41,145 nt of DNA from an uncultured Bacilli bacterium (GTDB lineage Bacteria > Bacillota_I > Bacilli_A > RF39 > UBA660). Numbering within the stretch: the stretch's first letter is position 1; each line of letters begins with the position of its first letter. The stretch lies in the NCBI GenBank assembly GCA_947591455.1, contig CANQDC010000005.1, forward strand, positions 1 to 41,145. The letters are read 5' to 3'. Positions 486 through 39,212 of the stretch are shown piece after piece. Position numbers and translations under genes: made by a program. The notes under the pieces are model-generated. The model was not told where the DNA came from. It saw only the letters and a list, made by a program, of their open reading frames with translations, and did not search any database.

Positions 486-1235
486 ATGGCAAATATAAAA
501 ACCTCCATCTCTTTTGGATTGGTCAATATACCTGTCCTTTTAAATCCGATTATTAAAAATAATGATACTTCTTTTAATCAATTACATAAAAAATGTGGCA
601 ACCGAGTGAAGTATATTAAATATTGTCCGGTGTGCAAAGAAGAAGTTAAACAAAAAGATATTATTAAAGGGTATGAATATGTTGATGATGAATATATCAC
701 TATTTCGGAAGAGGAATTTGATAAATTGAAAGTGGAAAATGATAAAACGATTGAAATTGTTGCTTTTGTAAAATTAAAAGATATTGATCCTCTTTATTTT
801 GAAAAAAGTTATGTGTTAAATATTGATAAACCTCAAAAAGCGTATACTTTATTTAAAAATGCTTTAAAAAAAAGTGGAAAAGTTGCTTTAGCCAAAACTG
901 TTATCAGTTCTAAGTTTTGTTATGTTATTTTACGTTTTGGGGAAAATCAAATTATTATGACTACTTTATATTTTCAAGAAGAAGTCAATTTAACAGAAAC
1001 TGTGCAGGATGCGAAAACGACGGAAAAGGAAATGGATTTGGCGATCCAATTAATTGACCAGCTAACAGGGACGTTTGAACCAGAAAAATATGTCGATGAA
1101 TATCAGAGTCGGATTAAAGAAGCTATAGAAAAAAAGGTGGAAGGCAAAACAATTAAAAAAGTAAAATCGAAAAAGAAAAAAAATATATCGAATTTATTAG
1201 AGGCTTTGGAAAAGAGTATTCAAGATGGAAAATAA
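486..1235 (+). CDS. ku: Bacterial Ku, non-homologous end-joining DNA-end-binding protein
   Basis: A 249-residue Ku-domain protein. Bacterial Ku forms a homodimeric ring that threads onto DNA double-strand ends and recruits the ligase LigD. The start MANIKTSISFGLVNIPV is the family's hallmark N-terminus. The region with residues KCGNRVKYIKYCPVC (about 36-50) and the KGYEY motif are typical. The C-terminus (about 210-240) is very Lys-rich, as in Ku proteins whose tails add DNA affinity. Length is slightly below the usual 260-290. The gene overlaps ligD by 11 bases, so the pair is translationally coupled. A sigma-G-like promoter upstream suggests use in spores. Family identity is firm; regulation is inferred. 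Confidence 0.95.
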   Translation: MANIKTSISFGLVNIPVLLNPIIKNNDTSFNQLHKKCGNRVKYIKYCPVCKEEVKQKDIIKGYEYVDDEYITISEEEFDKLKVENDKTIEIVAFVKLKDIDPLYFEKSYVLNIDKPQKAYTLFKNALKKSGKVALAKTVISSKFCYVILRFGENQIIMTTLYFQEEVNLTETVQDAKTTEKEMDLAIQLIDQLTGTFEPEKYVDEYQSRIKEAIEKKVEGKTIKKVKSKKKKNISNLLEALEKSIQDGK

Positions 1236-2115
1236 TTTATATAAAAAACGATCGTTTACACCGATGCTTTTAAGTGAAGTAAAAAAGCCTTTTGATGATC
1301 CGGATTATCTTTTTGAATTAAAATATGATGGAATTCGAGCTCTTATTTTTGCCAGCCCTAAGGAAGTAAGGATTCAAAGTAGAAATCATCATGATATTAC
1401 TTATTTGTATCCAGAATTACAGAGTATTCAAAAGATTGTTAAGAAAGAATGTATTTTTGATGGAGAGATTGTTTTGATGGAAGGTGGGGTTCCTAGTTTT
1501 TTAGCTTTACAAAAAAGGGCTCATTTAAAACAAAAAAATAAAATTTTGGAACAATCTATAAATCATCCTGTTCTTTTTATGGTTTTTGATCTTTTATATG
1601 AAAATAAAAATTTGATTGATTTCTCTTTATTAGAACGTAAAAAAATATTGGAAACTTACTCAGATACTTCTTGTTTTATAAAAAGTAAATACATGATACA
1701 AACGGGGAAAAAATTGTTTCAATTGGCTAAAAAATTTCATCTAGAGGGAATTGTTGCTAAAAAAATGAATAGTACTTATGAAATAAATACCCGGACCAAA
1801 AGTTGGCTCAAAATCAAGAATTTTAAAGAGCAAGATTTTTATATTGTCGGATACGAAAAGAAAGTAGGGGCTCTTTTGTTATATGTTGCCCAAAAGAAAA
1901 AAGAGGCGTATTTCTTTTCAGGGAAAGTTTTATTGTATGAAAATCATCCGGCTTATCAAAAGATTCTTGCCGTAAAGAAAAAAAATTATCCCATTTTGAA
2001 TACTCCGGAAGAATTTACAACCATTCTTCCTAAGTATCAAGCTACGATCATCTTTTTAGAAAAAAATAAAAATGGAAATTTACGTCATCCGGTATTTAAA
2101 AGTTTAAAAGAATAA
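1225..2115 (+). CDS. ligD: ATP-dependent DNA ligase, LigD ligase domain only
   Basis: A 296-residue ATP-dependent DNA ligase that seals ends held by Ku. The adenylation motif KYDGIR (about residues 33-38, Lys34 the likely nucleotidyl acceptor) is intact. The DGEIV motif (motif III), the EGIVAKK motif (motif IV) and the SWLKIKN motif (motif V) follow in order, then a C-terminal OB-fold-like region ending in LRHPVFK. The polymerase/primase and 3'-phosphoesterase domains found in larger LigD proteins are absent, so this is a minimal NHEJ ligase. The start lies inside the end of ku (11-base overlap). Alternative name: LigC-type ligase; the Ku linkage favours LigD function. Confidence 0.93.
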   Translation: MENNLYKKRSFTPMLLSEVKKPFDDPDYLFELKYDGIRALIFASPKEVRIQSRNHHDITYLYPELQSIQKIVKKECIFDGEIVLMEGGVPSFLALQKRAHLKQKNKILEQSINHPVLFMVFDLLYENKNLIDFSLLERKKILETYSDTSCFIKSKYMIQTGKKLFQLAKKFHLEGIVAKKMNSTYEINTRTKSWLKIKNFKEQDFYIVGYEKKVGALLLYVAQKKKEAYFFSGKVLLYENHPAYQKILAVKKKNYPILNTPEEFTTILPKYQATIIFLEKNKNGNLRHPVFKSLKE

Positions 2116-7440: not shown

Positions 7441-7458
7441 TATAGGGTGGGTAAATTT

Positions 7459-8964
7459 ATGGATATTCAATTAATTGGAGCATTGGATTATAAGAAATTA
7501 CAAACATTTTTAAAGGAGAAAAAGGTTGAAAATCAAGAAGAAATTATTCAATATATAAAAGATTTAGAAAAATTTGGAAGAGTACAAAAGGTCGTTTCTT
7601 CGGGACGTATTTCGAGATTTGCTGGCAATGTTTTTGATATTTTAAATATTACAGCAGAAAATACTTTAGAAGAAAATATCGCTTTTGCCGAGCGGGTTAT
7701 TCATCTTGGCCATACTTCGATTACAGATCATGATTATTTGTTTTTTGCTATTAAAGATGTAAGTCCAGTGGTAGAACAAACGATTATTGCTGAGAGATTT
7801 TCGAGTTTTACAATCAAGTCAAGAAGATTAGTTGATTTTTCTCATGTCGGTTTTTATACGCCTGATTTTCATGATCAACAAGGGAAGTTATTACAAAATA
7901 ATGAAGAAGTGAAAAGAATTTATCAAAATTATATGAATACTTTATTTGAGCAATATAATAAACTTGTTTCTCTTGGCATTCCTATTGAAGATGCACGGTT
8001 TGTTTTACCATATTCTTACCATTCAAATATATTTATGGGAGTGGATGCTCATACTCTCATGGAAATGATTATTAAATATACCAAAACTCATTTAAGTAAA
8101 ATTCAAGAAATTCGAGTGTTTGGTGAAAAGTTATTAGCTATTGCTCAAGAGAATTGTCCTTATATTCTAAAAGAAATTGAAAAACAATCTTCAAAAGAAA
8201 CCGATGAAATCGATGATATGTTCAAAGATTTAGCTATTCCTTCTTATTCTGTTTTAGATAGAGTAAAATTATTAAATTACTCTAAAGAAGTTGATGAGAC
8301 TATTTTAGTTTCGGCGATTATGCGTCGTTATCAAACAACTCGAGAGATCGCTTTACAAATTTTACAACAAGGTATTTCTAAAAATCCTACTTTTAAAGAA
8401 GATTTAATGAAGAAAATTGTTTTTGAAGGGGATCAATTAGAATTAACGCAAGTGAATTTCCAATATCAAATTCCTATTTCTTTTGCCATTCTTACTCATT
8501 TGACAAGGCATCGAACGCAAGATATTTTAATTCCATCATTTGCTCCAAACATTGATTTGGCTCAGTATAAGATTCCTCCAACAATAAAGAAAAATGATCT
8601 TATTTTGGATTTTTATACAGAAATCTATAAGAAAAATAGGGAAATGTATACGTATTTTAAATATGAACTCGGTATCCGAGAGGAAGATTTAGTTTATTTT
8701 ACTTTATCAGGTAATATGGTAAATGTTTTAACCAATATGGATGGAAAAACTTTGGAACATATTTTGAAGTTACGAGAATGTAATCGAGCTCAATGGGAAA
8801 CGAATGAAATGGCTCATGCAATGCATAAAGAGTTGAATCAGTTAAAAGATGCCCAAATATTTTCGAGTTTATTAGGAGCTTCTTGTGATACATTGGGAAA
8901 ATGTTTGGAAGGAAAACAATCTTGTGGCAAATTATTACAATTAAAAAAGAAAACTGCTCGTTAA
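7459..8964 (+). CDS. thyX: Tandem-fused ThyX-type flavin-dependent thymidylate synthase
   Basis: A 501-residue protein with two ThyX-like halves. ThyX makes dTMP from dUMP using FAD and methylene-tetrahydrofolate, usually as a homotetramer of about 220-residue chains. The first half (about 1-240) has GHTSITDHDYLFFAI, VSPVVEQTI and AERFSSFTIKSRRLV (about 111-125), where the usual RHR is AER but the downstream Ser is kept, then DARFVLP. The second half (about 265-501) has LTRHRTQDILIPSF, with RHR and Ser seven residues later, then GNMVNVLTNMDGKTLEH and a C-terminal HILKLRECNRAQWE, matching the substrate-binding end. Start: ATG at 7459, preceded by TAGGGTGGG. The fusion suggests the two halves build a composite active site. 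It takes the place where ftsY often lies. Confidence 0.82.
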   Translation: MDIQLIGALDYKKLQTFLKEKKVENQEEIIQYIKDLEKFGRVQKVVSSGRISRFAGNVFDILNITAENTLEENIAFAERVIHLGHTSITDHDYLFFAIKDVSPVVEQTIIAERFSSFTIKSRRLVDFSHVGFYTPDFHDQQGKLLQNNEEVKRIYQNYMNTLFEQYNKLVSLGIPIEDARFVLPYSYHSNIFMGVDAHTLMEMIIKYTKTHLSKIQEIRVFGEKLLAIAQENCPYILKEIEKQSSKETDEIDDMFKDLAIPSYSVLDRVKLLNYSKEVDETILVSAIMRRYQTTREIALQILQQGISKNPTFKEDLMKKIVFEGDQLELTQVNFQYQIPISFAILTHLTRHRTQDILIPSFAPNIDLAQYKIPPTIKKNDLILDFYTEIYKKNREMYTYFKYELGIREEDLVYFTLSGNMVNVLTNMDGKTLEHILKLRECNRAQWETNEMAHAMHKELNQLKDAQIFSSLLGASCDTLGKCLEGKQSCGKLLQLKKKTAR

Positions 8965-31579: not shown

Positions 31580-31674
31580 CGTTTGAAAGGGCTTTCCTTT
31601 CTAAAACCGCATGGAAAAGGTTAAAAAACAAATGTACCTTAACAGCGTGTCTTAAAAAATAAAGGAGGTATGAA
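31580..31674 (+). promoter_or_regulatory. Probable L21 leader RNA (ribosomal protein autoregulation)
   Basis: About 95 bases of structured leader between the promoter and rplU. Helix 1 is GAAAGG-GCTTT-CCTTTC; a second pairing joins AAGGT with ACCTT farther on, close to GGAGGT, the ribosome site. The position and hairpin arrangement agree with the L21 leader family of Bacillota, in which excess L21 represses its operon. Covariance-model support was not available. Confidence 0.55.
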
Positions 31675-31977
31675 ATGAAAGCTATATTCGTTACAGGTGG
31701 AAAACAATACTATGTAAGTGAAGGCGATGTTATTTATGTTGAAAAATTAAATGCAGAAGCTTCAAGTGACGTAGAATTTAATGAAGTTTTGTTTGTTGAT
31801 GGTAAAGCTGGGACTCCCTATGTTAAAGGAGCAAAAGTAATTTGTACTGTTGAAAAACATGGAAAACAAAAGAAAATTGTTGTTTTCAAATATAAACCTA
31901 AAAAGAAATATCGTAATACACAAGGTCATAGACAACCTTATACAAAGCTTGTTGTTAAAAAAATTGAAGTAAAATAA
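31675..31977 (+). CDS. rplU: 50S ribosomal protein L21
   Basis: A 100-residue L21. [18 protein letters not shown] at the start and the C-terminal [19 protein letters not shown] with KIEVK are characteristic. Strong AAAGGAGGT upstream. Heads the rplU-prp-rpmA operon with the order conserved across Bacillota. Confidence 0.98.
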
Positions 31978-32593: not shown

Positions 32594-32616
32594 AATTTAT
32601 TTTCCTGTGCTATAAT
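32594..32616 (+). promoter_or_regulatory. Island promoter 1 (extended -10) for repeat protein A and B
   Basis: AATTTATTTT, then TGTG plus one base and TATAAT (32611-32616). The same block recurs before repeat proteins C and D, so the three genes share a promoter design. A GATGGAGGAG ribosome site follows. Confidence 0.65.
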
Positions 32617-32642: not shown

Positions 32643-34121
32643 ATGCAATCAAATTTATATAAAAAAATATTAGAACAAGTAAAAAAATATCATTTAGTTT
32701 CTTGTTTTCGTACTATGGAAGGGTTAAATGAATGGATACTCAGTTTAGATGAAGGACAAATTCATAATTTTTTAAGTGTTGATCTACTATTTGCTAACGG
32801 AAATACCAAAATATTATGTAATAAAGATTTTTTAAGTAGTAAGTATTTTCAACATGATGTACAATTAATTGCTCGGGCAGATACAAGTGCAAAAGCTGAA
32901 GAATTAGTGCTTACTTTTTTAATTTGTCATCTCATTCACAATACGTATTATGAGAGTGATATGGAACGGATTGCTCAGGCTCAAACAAATATAAAAGTAG
33001 AACAATTAGGGAGTACGGCGAGAAGTAATTATTCTTTACAAGGGGATTATCATGAGAGGGATATGGAACTGATTGCACAAGCAGAAACTGATTTAAGAGC
33101 CAAAGAATTAGGAAAAACATCAAGAGATAAAGATTCATTGCTCCATGAATATCATGAAAAAGATATGAGATTGATCGCCAATGCACAGACAGAGGAAAAA
33201 GTCGAACAGCTAGGGATGACTTCAAGAAGTCAAGCTTCTTTACAAAGCCAGTATCACGAGATGGATATGGGTTTCATTTTTAGGGCTTCCACCGATGAAA
33301 AAGCTAGTCAATTGGGAGAAACTTCCCGAGATAAAGATTCCTTACAAAGTGAGTATCATGAGATGGATATGAGCTTCATTTTTAATGCTTCAACCAAAGA
33401 AAAGGCTAGTCAATTAGGGTTAACTTCAAGAAGTAGTCGTTTACAAGGGACTTATCATAAAGAAGATATGGAATTGATTGCCAATGCCAAAACGGATCTG
33501 CATGCGGAACAATTAGGATGGACAGCTAGAAATGATGCTTCTTTAGAAAGTCCGTATCATAACAGTGATATGGAACTCATTTCACAAACAGAAACAATTT
33601 TAAAAGTAGTACAATTAGGAATCACTTCAAGATATCGTTATTCTTTACAAAGTAAGTATCATGAGGGTGATATGAAACTAATTGCTAGAGCAGACACAGA
33701 TGAAAAAATCGATCAATTAGCGGCCACCGCCAGAGCATTCTATTCTTTAACAGGGAAATATCATGAGAATGACATGAAAAGTATTGCTGCTGCTAGAACC
33801 GATACGATAGCAGAGGAATTAGGAGATACCGCCAGACATGAGGCTTCTTTACAAAATAAAAGTCATGAACAAGATATGGAACTTATTGCTCAATCAAGTA
33901 CCAATGAAGAAGCTAGACAACTAGGATACATCGCCAGAAATAGTCAGTCTTTATTAAGCAAGACACATGAACAAGACATGGAAATGATGGTTCAATCAGA
34001 AACAAATCATCTAGATAAAAGATATTTAACGATGGAAGAAGTGATTACGCAACTGATACATGAGTTACCAGATAATGAAGAAGTCATATCCATTCGTTTA
34101 CAACGAGTATTAAAAAAATAA
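32643..34121 (+). CDS. 34-residue-repeat solenoid protein A (unrecognised family)
   Basis: A 492-residue soluble protein, no signal or membrane helix. Residues 1-67 form a cap shared with three paralogs (MQSNLYKKILEQ..., MEGLNEW, NFLSV). Residues 68-440 are eleven tandem 34-residue repeats (the sixth has 33). Residues 441-492 form a shared C-terminal cap (TMEEVITQLIHELPDNEEV). Repeat framework: Tyr1-His2-Glu3, Asp5-Met6, Ile9, Ala12, Thr14, Leu21-Gly22, Thr24-[Ser/Ala]-Arg26, Ser30-Leu31. Position 23 is different in each of repeats 2-11 (Ser, Lys, Met, Glu, Leu, Trp, Ile, Ala, Asp, Tyr). The first repeat's second half is aberrant (VLTFLICHLIHNT). Likely an alpha-helical solenoid for binding; ligand unknown. 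Gene B starts 18 bases later. Confidence 0.85.
   Translation: MQSNLYKKILEQVKKYHLVSCFRTMEGLNEWILSLDEGQIHNFLSVDLLFANGNTKILCNKDFLSSKYFQHDVQLIARADTSAKAEELVLTFLICHLIHNTYYESDMERIAQAQTNIKVEQLGSTARSNYSLQGDYHERDMELIAQAETDLRAKELGKTSRDKDSLLHEYHEKDMRLIANAQTEEKVEQLGMTSRSQASLQSQYHEMDMGFIFRASTDEKASQLGETSRDKDSLQSEYHEMDMSFIFNASTKEKASQLGLTSRSSRLQGTYHKEDMELIANAKTDLHAEQLGWTARNDASLESPYHNSDMELISQTETILKVVQLGITSRYRYSLQSKYHEGDMKLIARADTDEKIDQLAATARAFYSLTGKYHENDMKSIAAARTDTIAEELGDTARHEASLQNKSHEQDMELIAQSSTNEEARQLGYIARNSQSLLSKTHEQDMEMMVQSETNHLDKRYLTMEEVITQLIHELPDNEEVISIRLQRVLKK
32844..33962 (+). repeat. Eleven tandem 102-bp coding repeats in protein A
   Basis: Repeats are phased to the reading frame and diverged at the DNA level, with differences concentrated in codons 4, 7, 11, 13, 15-16, 19, 23 and 28-29 of the unit. 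The sixth unit has lost one codon. Confidence 0.9.
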
Positions 34122-34139
34122 GTAAGAAGGAGAATAATT

Positions 34140-35213
34140 ATGCAATCAACTAGATATAAAAAAATATTAGAACAAATCAAGAAATATAATTTAGTTACCT
34201 ATTTTTATACGATGGAAGGATTAAATGAATGGATCTTCAGTTTAAATGAAGGGCAAATTCATAATTTTTTAAGTGTTGATATTCCATTTCATTATGGAAA
34301 TACCAAAATATTATGTAATCGATATTTTTTAAATAGCCCATATTTTCAACACGATGTCAAGTTGATTGCTCAAGCAGGTATATCTGTAAAGGCTGATCAA
34401 TTAGGATACACTGCTATAGATGATAATTCCTTACAAAGTGATTACCATGAGACAGATATGGAATTGATTTCTAAAGCCGTTTCCTATAAAAAAATTGATG
34501 AGTTAGGAGAAACAGCAAGAGATCGTGATTCTTTACAAAGCCAATATCACGAGCAAGATATGAAACTTATTTTACAAGCAAAAACAGATGCTCAAGAAGA
34601 AGAATTAGGAATTACCTCAAGAGATGCAGATTCTTTGCAAAGCCAGTATCATGAGGGCGACATGGAACTCATTTTCCAAACTGACTTAGATATAAAGGTT
34701 AGACAATTAGGAGAAACAGCAAGGGATAAAGATTCTTTACAAAGTAAGTATCATAAGAGTGATATGGAGCTTATTTTTAAAGCAGATATTTCTAGAAAAG
34801 TATATGAATTAGGAGAAACCTCAAGACAGGAGGATTCTTTACAAAATGATAGTCATGAGCTAGATATGAAACTGATTGCTCAGGCAGACACAACGGAAAA
34901 AGCTAAACAATTAGGGACTACTGCAAGAGATTTTTTTTCTTTACAAAGTGATTACCATGAGAGTGATATGAAACGGATTGCCGGGGCAGACACAACTAGA
35001 ACTGTGTATGCATTAGGAGAAACTGCAAGAAATCAAAAATCGTTACAAAGTGAAAATCATGAACAAGAAATGGAAATGATTGTTCAATCAAAAATAATTG
35101 GTATCAATAAAAAATATTTGATGTTGGAAGAAAGAGTTGCTCAATTGATCCACCAATTACCAGACAATAAAGAAGTAAATTTAATCAATTTACAACGGAT
35201 ATTAAAGAAATAA
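34140..35213 (+). CDS. 34-residue-repeat solenoid protein B
   Basis: A 357-residue paralog of A with the same plan: 67-residue N-cap (MQSTRYKKILEQIKKY), seven full 34-residue repeats (68-305) and the 52-residue C-cap (RVAQLIHQLPDNKEVN). It is 18 bases after gene A with GAAGGAG between, so A and B form an operon. Position 23 is Glu in four of seven repeats (others Tyr, Ile, Thr), a different profile from A. Several repeats have Phe/Leu/Ser at position 10 instead of Ala. Followed by the island terminator. Confidence 0.85.
   Translation: MQSTRYKKILEQIKKYNLVTYFYTMEGLNEWIFSLNEGQIHNFLSVDIPFHYGNTKILCNRYFLNSPYFQHDVKLIAQAGISVKADQLGYTAIDDNSLQSDYHETDMELISKAVSYKKIDELGETARDRDSLQSQYHEQDMKLILQAKTDAQEEELGITSRDADSLQSQYHEGDMELIFQTDLDIKVRQLGETARDKDSLQSKYHKSDMELIFKADISRKVYELGETSRQEDSLQNDSHELDMKLIAQADTTEKAKQLGTTARDFFSLQSDYHESDMKRIAGADTTRTVYALGETARNQKSLQSENHEQEMEMIVQSKIIGINKKYLMLEERVAQLIHQLPDNKEVNLINLQRILKK
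34341..35054 (+). repeat. Seven tandem 102-bp coding repeats in protein B
   Basis: In-frame units, each encoding the 34-residue module; no unit is an exact copy of another. Confidence 0.9.
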
Positions 35214-35214
35214 T

Positions 35215-35239
35215 AAAATGGACTTTAGGTCCTTTTTTT
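35215..35239 (+). terminator. Island terminator 1
   Basis: AAAATGGACTTTAGGTCC then T7: stem GGACT/GGTCC with loop TTA. The same sequence follows repeat genes C and D. A GTTACACT block just after it recurs before obgE and probably belongs to the next gene's promoter. Confidence 0.65.
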
Positions 35240-35264
35240 GTTACACTTAAAACGAGGTGGAATT

Positions 35265-35903
35265 ATGCGATATAATGTGGTTAAAGGAGCTAAAGAAATA
35301 TTAGATAACAGTGATTATGTTATAAAAAATCCAGAAAATTATAAAAATAATTGGCAAAAATTATTTGGAAATAATCATCCTATTTGTTTAGAATTAGGAA
35401 TGGGTCGAGGTATATTTATCATTGAAATGGCCAAGAAAAATCCCGATATAAATTATATTGGGTTAGAGTTAGATGCTTCCCAAACAGCAACAGCTATAAA
35501 AAATATTGGAATGAAAAAATTAAATAATTTAAAAATTATTTGTAATGATGCGAATAACATCATCAATTATTTTGGTAAAGAAATCGATACTATTTATTTA
35601 ACGTTTTCAGAACCATGGCCCAAAAAACAAGATGAAAAGAAACGATTTACTTCTATTTCTTATTTAAAATTATATGATCGTATTTTTAAGAAAAATAAAC
35701 ACATTATTTTAAAAACGGATAATAAAATATTATTTGCTTCTTCACTAGAAAATTTAAGTGAATTTTGGTATACATTCGATAAGGTAAGTTTAGATTTACA
35801 TCATGATGAGCGAAATATTCCTAATATTATGACTGATTTTGAAGTGCAATATTATAAAGAACATCGTCCCATTTATTATGTTGATGCAAAATATAAAGAT
35901 TAA
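35265..35903 (+). CDS. trmB: tRNA (guanine-N7)-methyltransferase TrmB
   Basis: A 212-residue SAM-dependent enzyme that methylates guanosine 46 in the tRNA variable loop. The SAM-binding motif is LELGMGRGIFIIEMA (about 44-58), followed by YIGLELDASQTA, the family motif TFSEPWPKKQDEKKRFTS (about 117-134) and the C-terminal IMTDFEVQYY. An AACGAGGTGG site sets the ATG at 35265. It is embedded between repeat genes B and C, and a decayed copy lies between C and D, so it was carried along in a duplication. Confidence 0.95.
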   Translation: MRYNVVKGAKEILDNSDYVIKNPENYKNNWQKLFGNNHPICLELGMGRGIFIIEMAKKNPDINYIGLELDASQTATAIKNIGMKKLNNLKIICNDANNIINYFGKEIDTIYLTFSEPWPKKQDEKKRFTSISYLKLYDRIFKKNKHIILKTDNKILFASSLENLSEFWYTFDKVSLDLHHDERNIPNIMTDFEVQYYKEHRPIYYVDAKYKD

Positions 35904-35931
35904 TTTACAATTTATTTTAGTGTGATATAAT
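35904..35931 (+). promoter_or_regulatory. Island promoter 2 for repeat protein C
   Basis: TTTACA (35904-35909), 16 bases, TATAAT (35926-35931) preceded by TGTGA (extended -10). The spacer AATTTATTTT matches island promoters 1 and 3. Confidence 0.7.
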
Positions 35932-35959
35932 AATTAACCAAAAGAAAGAGGAAAAAAAT

Positions 35960-37132
35960 ATGCAATCAAATTTATATAAAAAAATATTAGAACAAATAAA
36001 AAAATATAATTTAGCGGCTAATTTTAAAACTATAGAAGAATTAAATGAGTGGATCTTCAGTTTAAATGAAGTGCAAATTAATAATTTATTAAGTGTTAAT
36101 ATGCCATTTAATACTGGTAACGAAAAAATATTATGTGATAAAGAATTTTTAAGTAGTAAATATTTTCAACATGATGTACAATTAATTGCTAGAGCAGACA
36201 CATATATGAAAGTAATACAATTAAGATACACTTCAAGAGATAAATATTCCCTACAAAGTGTTTATCATGAACAAGACATGAAGCTTATTGCTAGAGCAGA
36301 CAAAGATGAAAAAGTAATACAATTAGGAGCAACTTCAATAGATAAAGATTCCTTACAAAGTAAATATCATAAAGAAGATATGGAACATATTGCTAGAGCA
36401 GACACATATACAAAAGTAGAACAATTAGGAGCAACTTCAAGAGATAAAGATTCATTACAAAGTAAATATCATGAACAAGATATGAAACTTATTGCCAGGG
36501 CAGACACATATACAAAAGTAGAACAATTAGGATACACTTCAATAGATAGTGCCTCATTACAAAGTAAATATCATAAAGAAGATATGGAACATATTGCTAG
36601 AGCAGAAACAGATGCAAAAGCAAGACAATTAGGAACAACTTCAAGAGATAAGGATTCCTTACAAAGTGAGTGCCATAAAAAAGATATGAAGCTTATTGCT
36701 AAGGCAGAAACAGATGCAAAAGCAAATGCATCAGGAGTAACATCAAGAGATAAAGATTCCTTGCAAAGTGAGTGCCATAAAGAAGATATGGAACTTATTG
36801 CCAAAGCAGAAACAGATGAAAAAGCAAGACAATTAGGAATTACCTCAAGAGATTGGCACTCATTACGAAATAATTATCATGAACAAGATATGAAGCTTAT
36901 TGCTAAAGCAGAAACAGATGAAAAAGCAAAACAATTAGGATACACCTCAAGAGATATTGACTCATTACAAAGTAATTCTCATCAAAAAGAAATGAAAATG
37001 ATTTTTCAACTAGGAATAAATAATATAATTATAAAAAATTTAACCACAGAAGAAATAGTTGAACAATTGATAAATAATATACCAGAAAATGAAGAAGTAA
37101 ATATATTAACATTAAATCGAAAATTAAAATAA
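35960..37132 (+). CDS. 34-residue-repeat solenoid protein C
   Basis: A 390-residue paralog with the 67-residue N-cap, eight full repeats (68-339) and a 51-residue C-cap (TTEEIVEQLINNIPENEEVN). Its repeats are far more alike than those of A, B or D: repeats 2-3 and 4-5 form a duplicated pair, and 6-7 are near-copies (both begin Cys-His-Lys). This points to recent array expansion. Position 23 residues are Tyr, Ala, Ala, Tyr, Thr, Val, Ile, Tyr. Repeat 6 has lost the Gln-Leu-Gly core (Ala-Ser-Gly). The first 110 or so bases match gene D almost exactly. Confidence 0.85.
   Translation: MQSNLYKKILEQIKKYNLAANFKTIEELNEWIFSLNEVQINNLLSVNMPFNTGNEKILCDKEFLSSKYFQHDVQLIARADTYMKVIQLRYTSRDKYSLQSVYHEQDMKLIARADKDEKVIQLGATSIDKDSLQSKYHKEDMEHIARADTYTKVEQLGATSRDKDSLQSKYHEQDMKLIARADTYTKVEQLGYTSIDSASLQSKYHKEDMEHIARAETDAKARQLGTTSRDKDSLQSECHKKDMKLIAKAETDAKANASGVTSRDKDSLQSECHKEDMELIAKAETDEKARQLGITSRDWHSLRNNYHEQDMKLIAKAETDEKAKQLGYTSRDIDSLQSNSHQKEMKMIFQLGINNIIIKNLTTEEIVEQLINNIPENEEVNILTLNRKLK
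36161..36976 (+). repeat. Eight tandem 102-bp coding repeats in protein C, with 204-bp higher-order period
   Basis: Units 2-3 and 4-5 are duplicated as a pair: alternating His-Glu-Gln-Asp and His-Lys-Glu-Asp starts, with long shared DNA runs. Highest DNA identity among the four arrays. Confidence 0.88.
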
Positions 37133-37142
37133 TCAATTGGAT

Positions 37143-37167
37143 AAAATGGACTTTAGGTCCTTTTTTT
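37143..37167 (+). terminator. Island terminator 2
   Basis: Identical in stem, loop and T tract to island terminators 1 and 3. Confidence 0.65.
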
Positions 37168-37192
37168 GTTAAACTGTAAGCGATGTGTAATT

Positions 37193-37552
37193 ATGCGATA
37201 AAATAATTTATGTCAATTATTTTGGCAAAGAATATAGATATATTTATTTAACATTTTCAGAACCATGACCCAAAAAACAAGATGAAAAGAAACGAGTTAC
37301 TTCTATTTCTTATTTAAAATTCTATGATCGTATTTAAAAAAAAATAAACACATAATTTTAAAAACGGATAATAAAATATTATTTGCTTCTTCACTAGAAA
37401 ATTTCAGTGAATTTTGGTATACATTCGATAAAGTAAGTTTAGGTTTACATCATGATGAGCGAAATATGCCTAATATCATGACGGATTTTGAAGTGCAATA
37501 TTATAAAGAACATCGACCTATTTATTATGTTGATGCAAAATGTAAAGATTAA
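37193..37552 (+). pseudogene. trmB: Decayed second copy of trmB
   Basis: The stretch between genes C and D is a wrecked trmB. The 5' remnant ATG-CGA runs straight into TAA at the third codon, about 270 bases of the 5' half (counterpart roughly 35290-35560) are deleted, and the remaining 3' half matches trmB at roughly nine bases in ten. Two more nonsense changes are visible: Trp to TGA at 37266-37268 in the PWPKK motif, and Phe to TAA at 37335-37337. It cannot make TrmB. It marks the second copy of a duplicated trmB-plus-repeat-gene unit and accounts for this otherwise gene-free 470-base gap. Confidence 0.92.
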
Positions 37553-37556
37553 TTTA

Positions 37557-37573
37557 TTTTTTTGTGTTATAAT
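37557..37573 (+). promoter_or_regulatory. Island promoter 3 for repeat protein D
   Basis: TTTATTTTTTTGTG plus one base, then TATAAT (37568-37573). Same design as promoters 1 and 2, but about seven bases containing the -35 of promoter 2 are missing. Confidence 0.6.
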
Positions 37574-37602
37574 AAACAGCCGAAAGAAAAGAGGAAAAAA
37601 AT

Positions 37603-39186
37603 ATGCAATCAAATTTATATAAAAAAATATTAGAACAAATAAAAAAATATAATTTAGCGGCTAATTTTAAAACTATGGAAGAATTAAATGAGTGGATCTT
37701 CAGTTTAAATGAAGGGCAAATTCATAATTTTTTAAGTGTTCATGTGCCCTTTGATAATCATGCAACCTATATATTACGTGATAAAAAATTTTTAAATAGT
37801 AAATATTTTCAACATGATTTACCATTAATTGCCCGTGCGGATACAAGTGCAAAAATTTTACAATTATCTGTAGTTTTAAGAGATAAATATTCCTTACAAA
37901 GTAAGTATCATGAAAGTGATATGGAACTGATTGCGAAAGCAGATACTGCTGAAAAAGTATTTGAATTAGGATATACTGCCAGAGATAAAGATTCTTTACA
38001 AGGCGAATATCATGAGAGTGATATGGCACTGATCGCAGGGGCAGATACAGATGTAAAAGCGATCCAATTAGGAAAAACTTCCAGAAATTTTGCCTCTTTA
38101 AGAAATGCCTATCATGAGAATGACATGAAATTGATTACAAGAGCAGATATTAATGAAAAAATCATACAATTAGGAGTAACTTCAAGAGATAGTGATTCCT
38201 TACAAAGTAAATATCATGAAAGTGATATGGAACTGATTGCAAAAGCGAATACAGCGAAAAAAGCAGAAGCTTTAGGATACACTGCAAGAAATCATTACTC
38301 ATTGAATAATGATTGTCATGAGAGTGATATGGAACTGATTGCTAAAGCGGATACTGCTAAAAAAACAGAACAATTAGGAGTAACTTCAAGGGATAAAGAT
38401 TCTTTACAAAGCAAGTATCACAAGCAAGATATGGAATACATTGCTAAAGCAGATACAAGTGTCAAAGTAGAAGAATTAGGAGCTACTTCAAGAGATAGTG
38501 ATTCCTTACAAAGTAAGTATCATAAGAGTGATATGGAAATGATGGCCAAAGCAGATGCAGCGAAAAAAGTAGAAGGTTTAGGAGTAACTTCGAGAGATAA
38601 AACTTCTTTACAAAGTACATATCATGAGAGTGATATGCAACTTATTTTTCAAGCAGATACAACTCTAAAAGCTAAACAATTAGGCATAACTGCAGTGAAT
38701 CCTGATTCTTTACATAGTGATTATCATGAGAGTGATATGACATTGATTATGCAAGCAAATACAGCTACAAAAGCAGAACAATTAGGTTGTACTGCAAGAA
38801 ATTGGCGCTCATTTGCAAAAGATTATCATAAAATAGATATGGAACTCATTGCCAATGCAAATACGGATATAAAAGCTATACAATTAGGGTTAACTTCACG
38901 TGATGATACTTCACTTGAAGGAAATTATCATGAGAGCGATATGAAACTAATTGCTCAGGCAGAAACAGATGAAAAAGCTTCTGTTTTAGGAGACACGGCA
39001 CGAGATGAGTGGTCAGTAAATAGTAAGGATCATGAAGCAAGAATGACAATGATTTTTCAATCGGCAATCGATAATCCAATTGCAAAAAGTGCAACTATAA
39101 AAGAAAGAATTGATCAAGCGTTAAATAATGTACCAGAAAATGAAGAAGTAGATGCATTAAGCATACAACGGATATTAAAGAAATAA
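37603..39186 (+). CDS. 34-residue-repeat solenoid protein D
   Basis: A 527-residue paralog, the largest, with the 67-residue N-cap, twelve full repeats (68-475) and a 52-residue C-cap (IKERIDQALNNVPENEEVD). Position 23 is Val, Tyr, Lys, Val, Tyr, Val, Ala, Val, Ile, Cys, Leu, Asp. His-Glu-Ser-Asp starts dominate. Residues 1-50 are nearly identical to protein C, then the cap diverges (HVPFDNHATYILRDKK), suggesting a recombination boundary inside the cap. No signal peptide. Its terminator separates it from obgE. Confidence 0.85.
   Translation: MQSNLYKKILEQIKKYNLAANFKTMEELNEWIFSLNEGQIHNFLSVHVPFDNHATYILRDKKFLNSKYFQHDLPLIARADTSAKILQLSVVLRDKYSLQSKYHESDMELIAKADTAEKVFELGYTARDKDSLQGEYHESDMALIAGADTDVKAIQLGKTSRNFASLRNAYHENDMKLITRADINEKIIQLGVTSRDSDSLQSKYHESDMELIAKANTAKKAEALGYTARNHYSLNNDCHESDMELIAKADTAKKTEQLGVTSRDKDSLQSKYHKQDMEYIAKADTSVKVEELGATSRDSDSLQSKYHKSDMEMMAKADAAKKVEGLGVTSRDKTSLQSTYHESDMQLIFQADTTLKAKQLGITAVNPDSLHSDYHESDMTLIMQANTATKAEQLGCTARNWRSFAKDYHKIDMELIANANTDIKAIQLGLTSRDDTSLEGNYHESDMKLIAQAETDEKASVLGDTARDEWSVNSKDHEARMTMIFQSAIDNPIAKSATIKERIDQALNNVPENEEVDALSIQRILKK
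37804..39027 (+). repeat. Twelve tandem 102-bp coding repeats in protein D
   Basis: In-frame 34-codon units; units 2, 5 and 6 share the stretch encoding HESDMELIAKA, the others are more diverged. Confidence 0.9.
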
Positions 39187-39187
39187 T

Positions 39188-39212
39188 AAAATGGACTTTA
39201 GGTCCTTTTTTT
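39188..39212 (+). terminator. Island terminator 3
   Basis: Third copy of the GGACT-TTA-GGTCC-T7 hairpin. A TATAAA at 39220-39225 after it could be the obgE -10. Confidence 0.65.

What the first reader, a model, noticed from the sequence alone, without database searches (positions are those of the whole stretch)
32643..39186. Island of four paralogous 34-residue-repeat proteins of an unrecognised family
Four genes share one architecture: 67-residue N-cap, then 11, 7, 8 or 12 tandem 34-residue repeats, then a 51-52-residue C-cap. The counts tile exactly to the protein lengths (492, 357, 390, 527). The repeats predict as paired helices forming a solenoid, with no signal peptide, so they should act in the cytosol. 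I cannot assign them to TPR, HEAT, ankyrin, Sel1, PPR or another family I know. A multi-copy, length-varying, intracellular modular binder is a plausible undescribed recognition or defence-like system; that function is inference.
Basis: partly seen in the sequence, partly recalled or inferred. Interest (0 to 1): 0.88.

Follow-up and report, generated by a model that had tools for sequence, protein, structure and literature searches.

The report
Undescribed gut-bacterial helical repeat proteins
Four neighbouring genes in an uncultured gut bacterium make modular rods built from a 34-residue, three-helix unit that matches no known repeat family; they look like intracellular binding proteins whose binding faces diversify by duplication and recombination, but what they bind is unknown.

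Summary
Four intact paralogous genes lie between rpmA and obgE: a 67-residue N-cap, then 11, 7, 8 or 12 repeats, then a 51-52-residue C-cap. One correction: one repeat of protein A has 33 residues. Pfam, NCBIfam, PADLOC, PHROGs and PDB sequences give no credible match. AlphaFold2 predicts a regular solenoid (whole protein D pLDDT 88; six repeats pLDDT 98, pTM 0.92) with THREE helices per repeat, not two. Foldseek finds no significant solved match; TAL effectors and designed helical repeats lead far below significance. Relatives occur in 31 of 386 genomes sampled from the same GTDB family, with no match seen outside it, and none in phages, plasmids or viral contigs. Framework positions are frozen; positions 16, 19, 23 (one face of the middle helix) and 28 are free or mildly diversifying. 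A decayed trmB copy between genes C and D shows a segmental duplication in which trmB died and the solenoid gene survived. No defence gene or constant partner accompanies the family. Best reading: a new, lineage-restricted alpha-solenoid family of cytosolic modular binding proteins; ligand unknown, protein more likely than nucleic acid because the proteins are acidic. The defence idea is unsupported.

The parts
32643..34121 (+). Protein A, 492 aa: N-cap 32643-32843, 11 repeats 32844-33962 (one of 33 residues), C-cap 33963-34118
34140..35213 (+). Protein B, 357 aa: N-cap 34140-34340, 7 repeats 34341-35054, C-cap 35055-35210; 18 bp after A, probably co-transcribed with it
35220..35239 (+). Intrinsic-terminator-like hairpin plus T-run after B
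   Evidence: the same hairpin follows B, C and D
35238..35903 (+). trmB-like tRNA methyltransferase gene inside the island (likely start at 35265); host locus, not part of the repeat family
   Evidence: (PF02390, 1.1e-34)
35904..35931 (+). Promoter-like site for C (TTTACA-16-TATAAT with TG before the second hexamer, 11 of 12 matches)
   Evidence: extended -10-like TGTGYTATAAT also read by eye before A (about 32607-32616) and D (about 37564-37573)
35960..37132 (+). Protein C, 390 aa: N-cap 35960-36160, 8 repeats 36161-36976, C-cap 36977-37129
37148..37167 (+). Terminator-like hairpin plus T-run after C
37190..37557 (+). Decayed trmB copy: most of the 5' half deleted, stops and frameshifts in all frames, 93-95% DNA identity to the intact trmB over its 3' part
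37603..39186 (+). Protein D, 527 aa: N-cap 37603-37803, 12 repeats 37804-39027, C-cap 39028-39183; AlphaFold2 model mec19b47b665f
37906..38517 (+). Six-repeat segment of D folded alone (pLDDT 98.2, pTM 0.92): helices at repeat positions about 2-11, 15-26, 28-32
39193..39212 (+). Terminator-like hairpin plus T-run after D, before obgE

Best explanation
A, B, C and D are members of an undescribed alpha-solenoid family restricted, as far as sampled, to one GTDB family of uncultured gut Bacilli. Each 34-residue unit folds as three helices (about 10, 11 and 5 residues) and stacks into a capped rod of 7-12 units. The proteins most likely work as cytosolic modular binders, probably of protein or peptide ligands. 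Conserved residues (Y1 H2 D5 M6 I9 A12 L21 G22 T24 S30 L31) hold the stack; variable residues on one face of the middle helix (16, 19, 23) plus 28 and 4 would form the ligand surface. Gene duplication, exchange between paralogs and gain or loss of repeats would change length and specificity. The disordered linker and short C-terminal helix (in distant relatives a basic amphipathic tail) may dock the rod to a common partner or to the inner membrane face. Shown by sequence and computation: architecture, no known family match, restricted distribution, purifying framework, duplication history. Strongly predicted: the fold. Inferred: binding, ligand class, role of the tail.
For: Fold. No family match. 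Distribution. Constraint pattern: framework omega about 0-0.3, positions 16, 23 and 28 about 1.4-1.5, overall 0.56-0.58. Retention while the duplicated trmB decayed, and mosaic near-identity of C and D over the first 120 nt only. Repeats inside C (mean DNA identity 0.78) and E2 (0.84) are more alike than repeats between paralogs (0.66), which points to turnover within arrays; A and B (0.60, 0.65) do not show this. Own promoter-like and terminator-like signals. Acidic, pI 5.2-6.1, no signal peptide or TM segment. Basic C-terminal tails in the wider family.
Against: No ligand, partner gene or phenotype is known. Excess replacement at 16, 23 and 28 is only nominally significant (P 0.003-0.03 before correcting for 34 tests), and recombination violates the tree used. 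The basic tail is weak in the window's own proteins (charge +1 to +3). An alpha-solenoid can also be a structural spacer or a nucleic-acid binder.
Confidence: 0.6

Rival explanations
1. Nucleic-acid recognition solenoid, working like TAL effectors (34-residue repeats) or PUF proteins (three-helix repeats, variable residues on the middle helix).
For: Same repeat length as TAL effectors, which fill most of the Foldseek PDB list for whole D; three helices with variation on the middle helix, PUF-like (PUF anatomy from general knowledge).
Against: Foldseek E is 0.06 or worse and TM about 0.2 for whole D; with the six-repeat model TALEs fall behind designed proteins, E 0.5 or worse. No hit to TAL-effector or PUF families in Pfam or to their PDB sequences. 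Net charge -5 to -23, pI 5.2-6.1.
Confidence: 0.12
2. Intracellular sensors or decoys in anti-phage or other defence.
For: Multi-copy, patchy, mildly diversifying surface, different genomes holding different copies at the same slot.
Against: No PADLOC match of note; no nuclease, ATPase, NADase or toxin partner; no mobile context; housekeeping neighbours; no phage-borne relatives.
Confidence: 0.1
3. Exported effector or adhesin acting on the host or on other microbes by a leaderless route.
For: Host-associated lineage with small genomes; leaderless repeat proteins are common effectors in other lineages (general knowledge).
Against: No signal peptide, anchor or TM segment; no secretion-system gene noticed in the annotated part of the window; secretion systems elsewhere in the genome were not searched.
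Confidence: 0.1
4. Functionless lineage-specific expansion kept by duplication bias.
For: In G015 the homologous slot holds a fragmented copy; many congeners have none at this locus.
Against: Four long intact ORFs beside a decayed trmB duplicate, framework omega near 0, promoter-like and terminator-like signals.
Confidence: 0.08

Closest known systems
Designed helical repeat proteins (for example PDB 7upp, 8erw, 8v2d)
   Same: Best Foldseek matches of the six-repeat model: compact stacked helices, straight solenoid
   Different: E 0.014 at best, TM 0.45 or less; artificial proteins with no shared sequence
TAL effectors / TALE-likes (dHax3)
   Same: 34-residue repeats, helical solenoid, top of the PDB list for whole D
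   Different: E not significant, TM about 0.2; no Pfam or PDB sequence match; three helices per repeat here; acidic; variable residues inside helices rather than in an inter-helix loop (loop position from general knowledge)
PUF / Pumilio repeats
   Same: Three helices per repeat of about 36 residues; specificity residues on the middle helix (general knowledge)
   Different: No sequence hit and no PUF structure among the listed Foldseek hits
TPR / PPR / HEAT / ankyrin / Sel1 solenoids
   Same: Modular length-variable solenoids, commonly protein- or RNA-binding
   Different: No Pfam match; no structure of these families among the listed Foldseek hits
Second repeat subgroup in the same GTDB family (G530, G355, G513, G603; L099, L106, L110, L114)
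   Same: 34-residue repeats with shared NAK...A...VA...L core; hhalign E 4.5e-12
   Different: Different caps; helix-A segment lacks the YHxxDM motif; also undescribed

Membership tests
TAL effector / TALE-like | Sequence match to TAL effector repeat models or solved TALE chains | tested here: not met
   No hit in Pfam at E up to 10 or among PDB chain sequences
TAL effector / TALE-like | Same solenoid geometry | tested here: not met
   Foldseek E 0.06 or worse, TM about 0.2; E 0.5 or worse with the six-repeat model
TAL effector / TALE-like | Base-specifying residues in the inter-helix loop | tested here: not met
   Most variable positions (16, 19, 23, 28) lie in helices B and C, not in the A-B turn at 12-14
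TPR | TPR consensus, two antiparallel helices per 34 residues | tested here: not met
   No Pfam hit; three helices per repeat
PUF | Sequence match to Pumilio repeats | tested here: not met
PUF | RNA binding | not testable with these tools
   needs biochemistry
Alpha-solenoid repeat proteins (broad structural class) | Tandem, regularly stacked helical units with caps | tested here: met
   (predicted structure)
Anti-phage defence system | Match to known defence proteins or defence-island context | tested here: not met
   housekeeping neighbours
Secreted or surface protein | Signal peptide, TM segment or anchor | tested here: not met
   Hydropathy only: maximum 19-residue mean 0.98; N-termini 0.49 or less

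The most novel reading that the evidence does not exclude
A lineage-restricted repertoire of intracellular recognition proteins: a previously unseen three-helix, 34-residue solenoid code in which residues 16, 19, 23 and 28 of each repeat specify ligand contacts and paralogs are reshuffled by duplication and recombination, giving these reduced gut Bacilli a family of swappable binders.
Probability: 0.15. Interest if true: 0.85.

Novelty: new variant of a known kind. Interest (0 to 1): 0.5.

Why it matters
It adds an apparently undescribed natural alpha-solenoid family with a very regular 34-residue unit and high-confidence fold prediction. If the variable face proves to be a ligand-binding surface, it would give a naturally diversified scaffold and a handle on the biology of an uncultured, small-genome gut lineage. 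The trmB pseudogene gives a built-in neutral yardstick showing that the solenoid genes were retained after duplication.

Tried and rejected
1) Family assignment by Pfam, NCBIfam, PADLOC, PHROGs and PDB sequence searches: only weak chance matches, none consistent between paralogs; the best profile hits are designed coiled coils at E 0.002, compositional.

2) TAL-effector likeness: prompted by repeat length and the whole-D Foldseek list; it weakened with a shorter, better model.

3) Defence or phage origin: no relatives in phages, plasmids or viral contigs.

4) Partner gene: congeners carry a different orphan gene family in the trmB-obgE slot, absent from the window's genome; no constant partner found.

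5) Membrane-tail idea: strong in distant relatives (tail charge +4 to +7, often with high hydrophobic moment) but weak in A-D; kept only as a lead.

6) Positive selection: only nominal signal.

7) Literature: searches gave no description of the family.

Full report
OBSERVATION. Four open reading frames of 492, 357, 390 and 527 aa lie at the stated coordinates, all on the + strand. Anchoring on H-x-x-D-M-x-x-I shows repeats of exactly 34 residues, except one of 33 in protein A. All four share a 67-residue N-cap and a 51-52-residue C-cap. At the DNA level 30 copies of a 300-nt block lie in register at 102-nt steps.

SURROUNDINGS. The genes lie between rpmA and obgE with trmB (PF02390) between B and C. 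The rest of the annotated window is ordinary housekeeping. The window is one contig of a 1.03-Mb, 67%-complete draft genome. Small genomes and partial sporulation genes fit RF39-type Bacilli as described in PMC7301438 and PMC10868615, but that placement was not tested.

FAMILY SEARCHES. None of A-D gives a credible match in Pfam, NCBIfam, PADLOC or PHROGs or among PDB sequences, singly or as a profile. Weak matches differ from paralog to paralog and, where the library gives curated cut-offs, fall under them.

RELATIVES. With protein D as query, 10 of 60 genomes were positive, all in the same genus. With the repeat profile, 31 of 386 genomes of the same GTDB family were positive. Samples of the class (296 genomes) and phylum (344) gave no match outside that family. 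A genome-collection scan found 11 loci, mostly uncultured Bacilli. Viral contigs, phages and plasmids gave none. Members use different housekeeping slots: rpmA-trmB-obgE in G000, G001 and as a fragmented copy in G015; beside valS or hrcA in G007, G010 and G016; beside mutM in G010 and G016; beside a HAD-phosphatase/GTPase pair in G001 (gene names by eye). Two further subgroups share the repeat: a mostly single-copy 350-530-residue form with degenerate repeats (hhalign E 1.2e-15) and a form with NAKGxYQAxYGxxVA repeats (hhalign E 4.5e-12).

FOLD. AlphaFold2 on D with 13 sequences: mean pLDDT 88.4, pTM 0.77; only residues 486-500, between the repeats and the last helix, form a stretch below 50. 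A six-repeat piece with 19 sequences: pLDDT 98.2, pTM 0.92, helices at repeat positions about 2-11, 15-26 and 28-32. Each repeat therefore has three helices, not two. Foldseek against the PDB gives nothing at E <= 0.001 for either model. TAL effectors lead for whole D (E about 0.06-1, TM about 0.2); designed helical repeats lead for the piece (best E 0.014, TM 0.45 or less).

CONSTRAINT. On a tree of 60 repeats from A-D and one congener, positions 1, 2, 5, 6, 9, 12, 21, 22, 24, 30 and 31 have omega 0-0.3. Positions 16, 23 and 28 are near 1.4-1.5 and 19 near 1.1 (1.4 in A-D alone); overall omega is 0.56-0.58. Positions 16, 19 and 23 fall on one face of the middle helix. The excess is nominal only (P 0.003-0.03, 34 positions tested, recombination ignored). 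This is the pattern expected of a frozen scaffold with a free or diversifying surface.

HISTORY. Between C and D lies a decayed trmB, 93-95% identical to the intact gene over its 3' part, with most of the 5' half missing and stops in all frames. C and D are 97-100% identical over their first 120 nt, then drop to roughly 55-93%. The simplest reading is a duplication or unequal exchange carrying trmB and the start of C to a position before an older D body; trmB then decayed and D stayed open. Repeats within C and within E2 of G001 are more alike (mean DNA identity 0.78 and 0.84) than repeats between paralogs (0.66), which suggests turnover within arrays; A and B do not show it (0.60, 0.65). B, C and D are each followed by the same terminator-like hairpin; C has a strong promoter-like site, and A and D show extended -10-like motifs.

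MECHANISM. Commitment: modular cytosolic binding proteins, protein or peptide ligands more likely than nucleic acid (pI 5.2-6.1, net charge -5 to -23). The linker and C-terminal helix may dock to a common partner; distant relatives end in basic, often amphipathic tails (charge +4 to +7 in the last 13 residues), which suggests membrane or partner attachment. This is inference, and the signal is weak in A-D.

NOVELTY. Alpha-solenoids are a known kind; this family matched none of the libraries tested and the literature searches gave no description of it. It is filed as a new variant of a known kind. Defence is not excluded but has no positive support.

Noticed in passing
window 37190-37557: Decayed second copy of trmB (93-95% identical 3' part), left by a segmental duplication inside the island.
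   Followed up: yes
L117 2152-2721, L118 926-1486, L120 2164-3264, L122 439-1482, L123 935-1483, L124 2155-2739: In other congeners the slot after trmB (before obgE where that is visible) holds a different, fast-evolving orphan gene family of about 180-370 aa; it is absent from the window's genome.
   Followed up: partly
L099, L106, L110, L114: A second undescribed multi-copy family of 34-residue repeats (NAKGxYQAxYGxxVAxNxxVLAREDxxxFV), up to 783 aa, related at profile level to the window's repeats.
   Followed up: partly
L011-L014, L035-L038, L059-L070: Mostly single-copy relatives with degenerate repeats usually end in a basic, often amphipathic C-terminal tail (charge +4 to +7), a possible membrane-targeting sequence.
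   Followed up: partly
window 32880-32950 (protein A, first repeat): The second half of this repeat (ELVLTFLICHLIHNT) departs from the consensus; possibly two compensating frameshifts, but the alignment does not settle it.
   Followed up: partly
window 486-2115: Ku and ATP-dependent DNA ligase genes side by side (non-homologous end joining) in a genome of about 1 Mb.
   Followed up: no
window 7447-8964: A 505-aa protein with two stretches matching ThyX (thymidylate synthase complementing protein), twice the usual length.
   Followed up: no
window 31595-31662: L21 leader (RF00559) upstream of the rplU-like gene at 31675.
   Followed up: no
G000:C1:10475-11101: A second, divergent TrmB-like gene (45% identity); most congeners searched also have two copies.
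   Followed up: no
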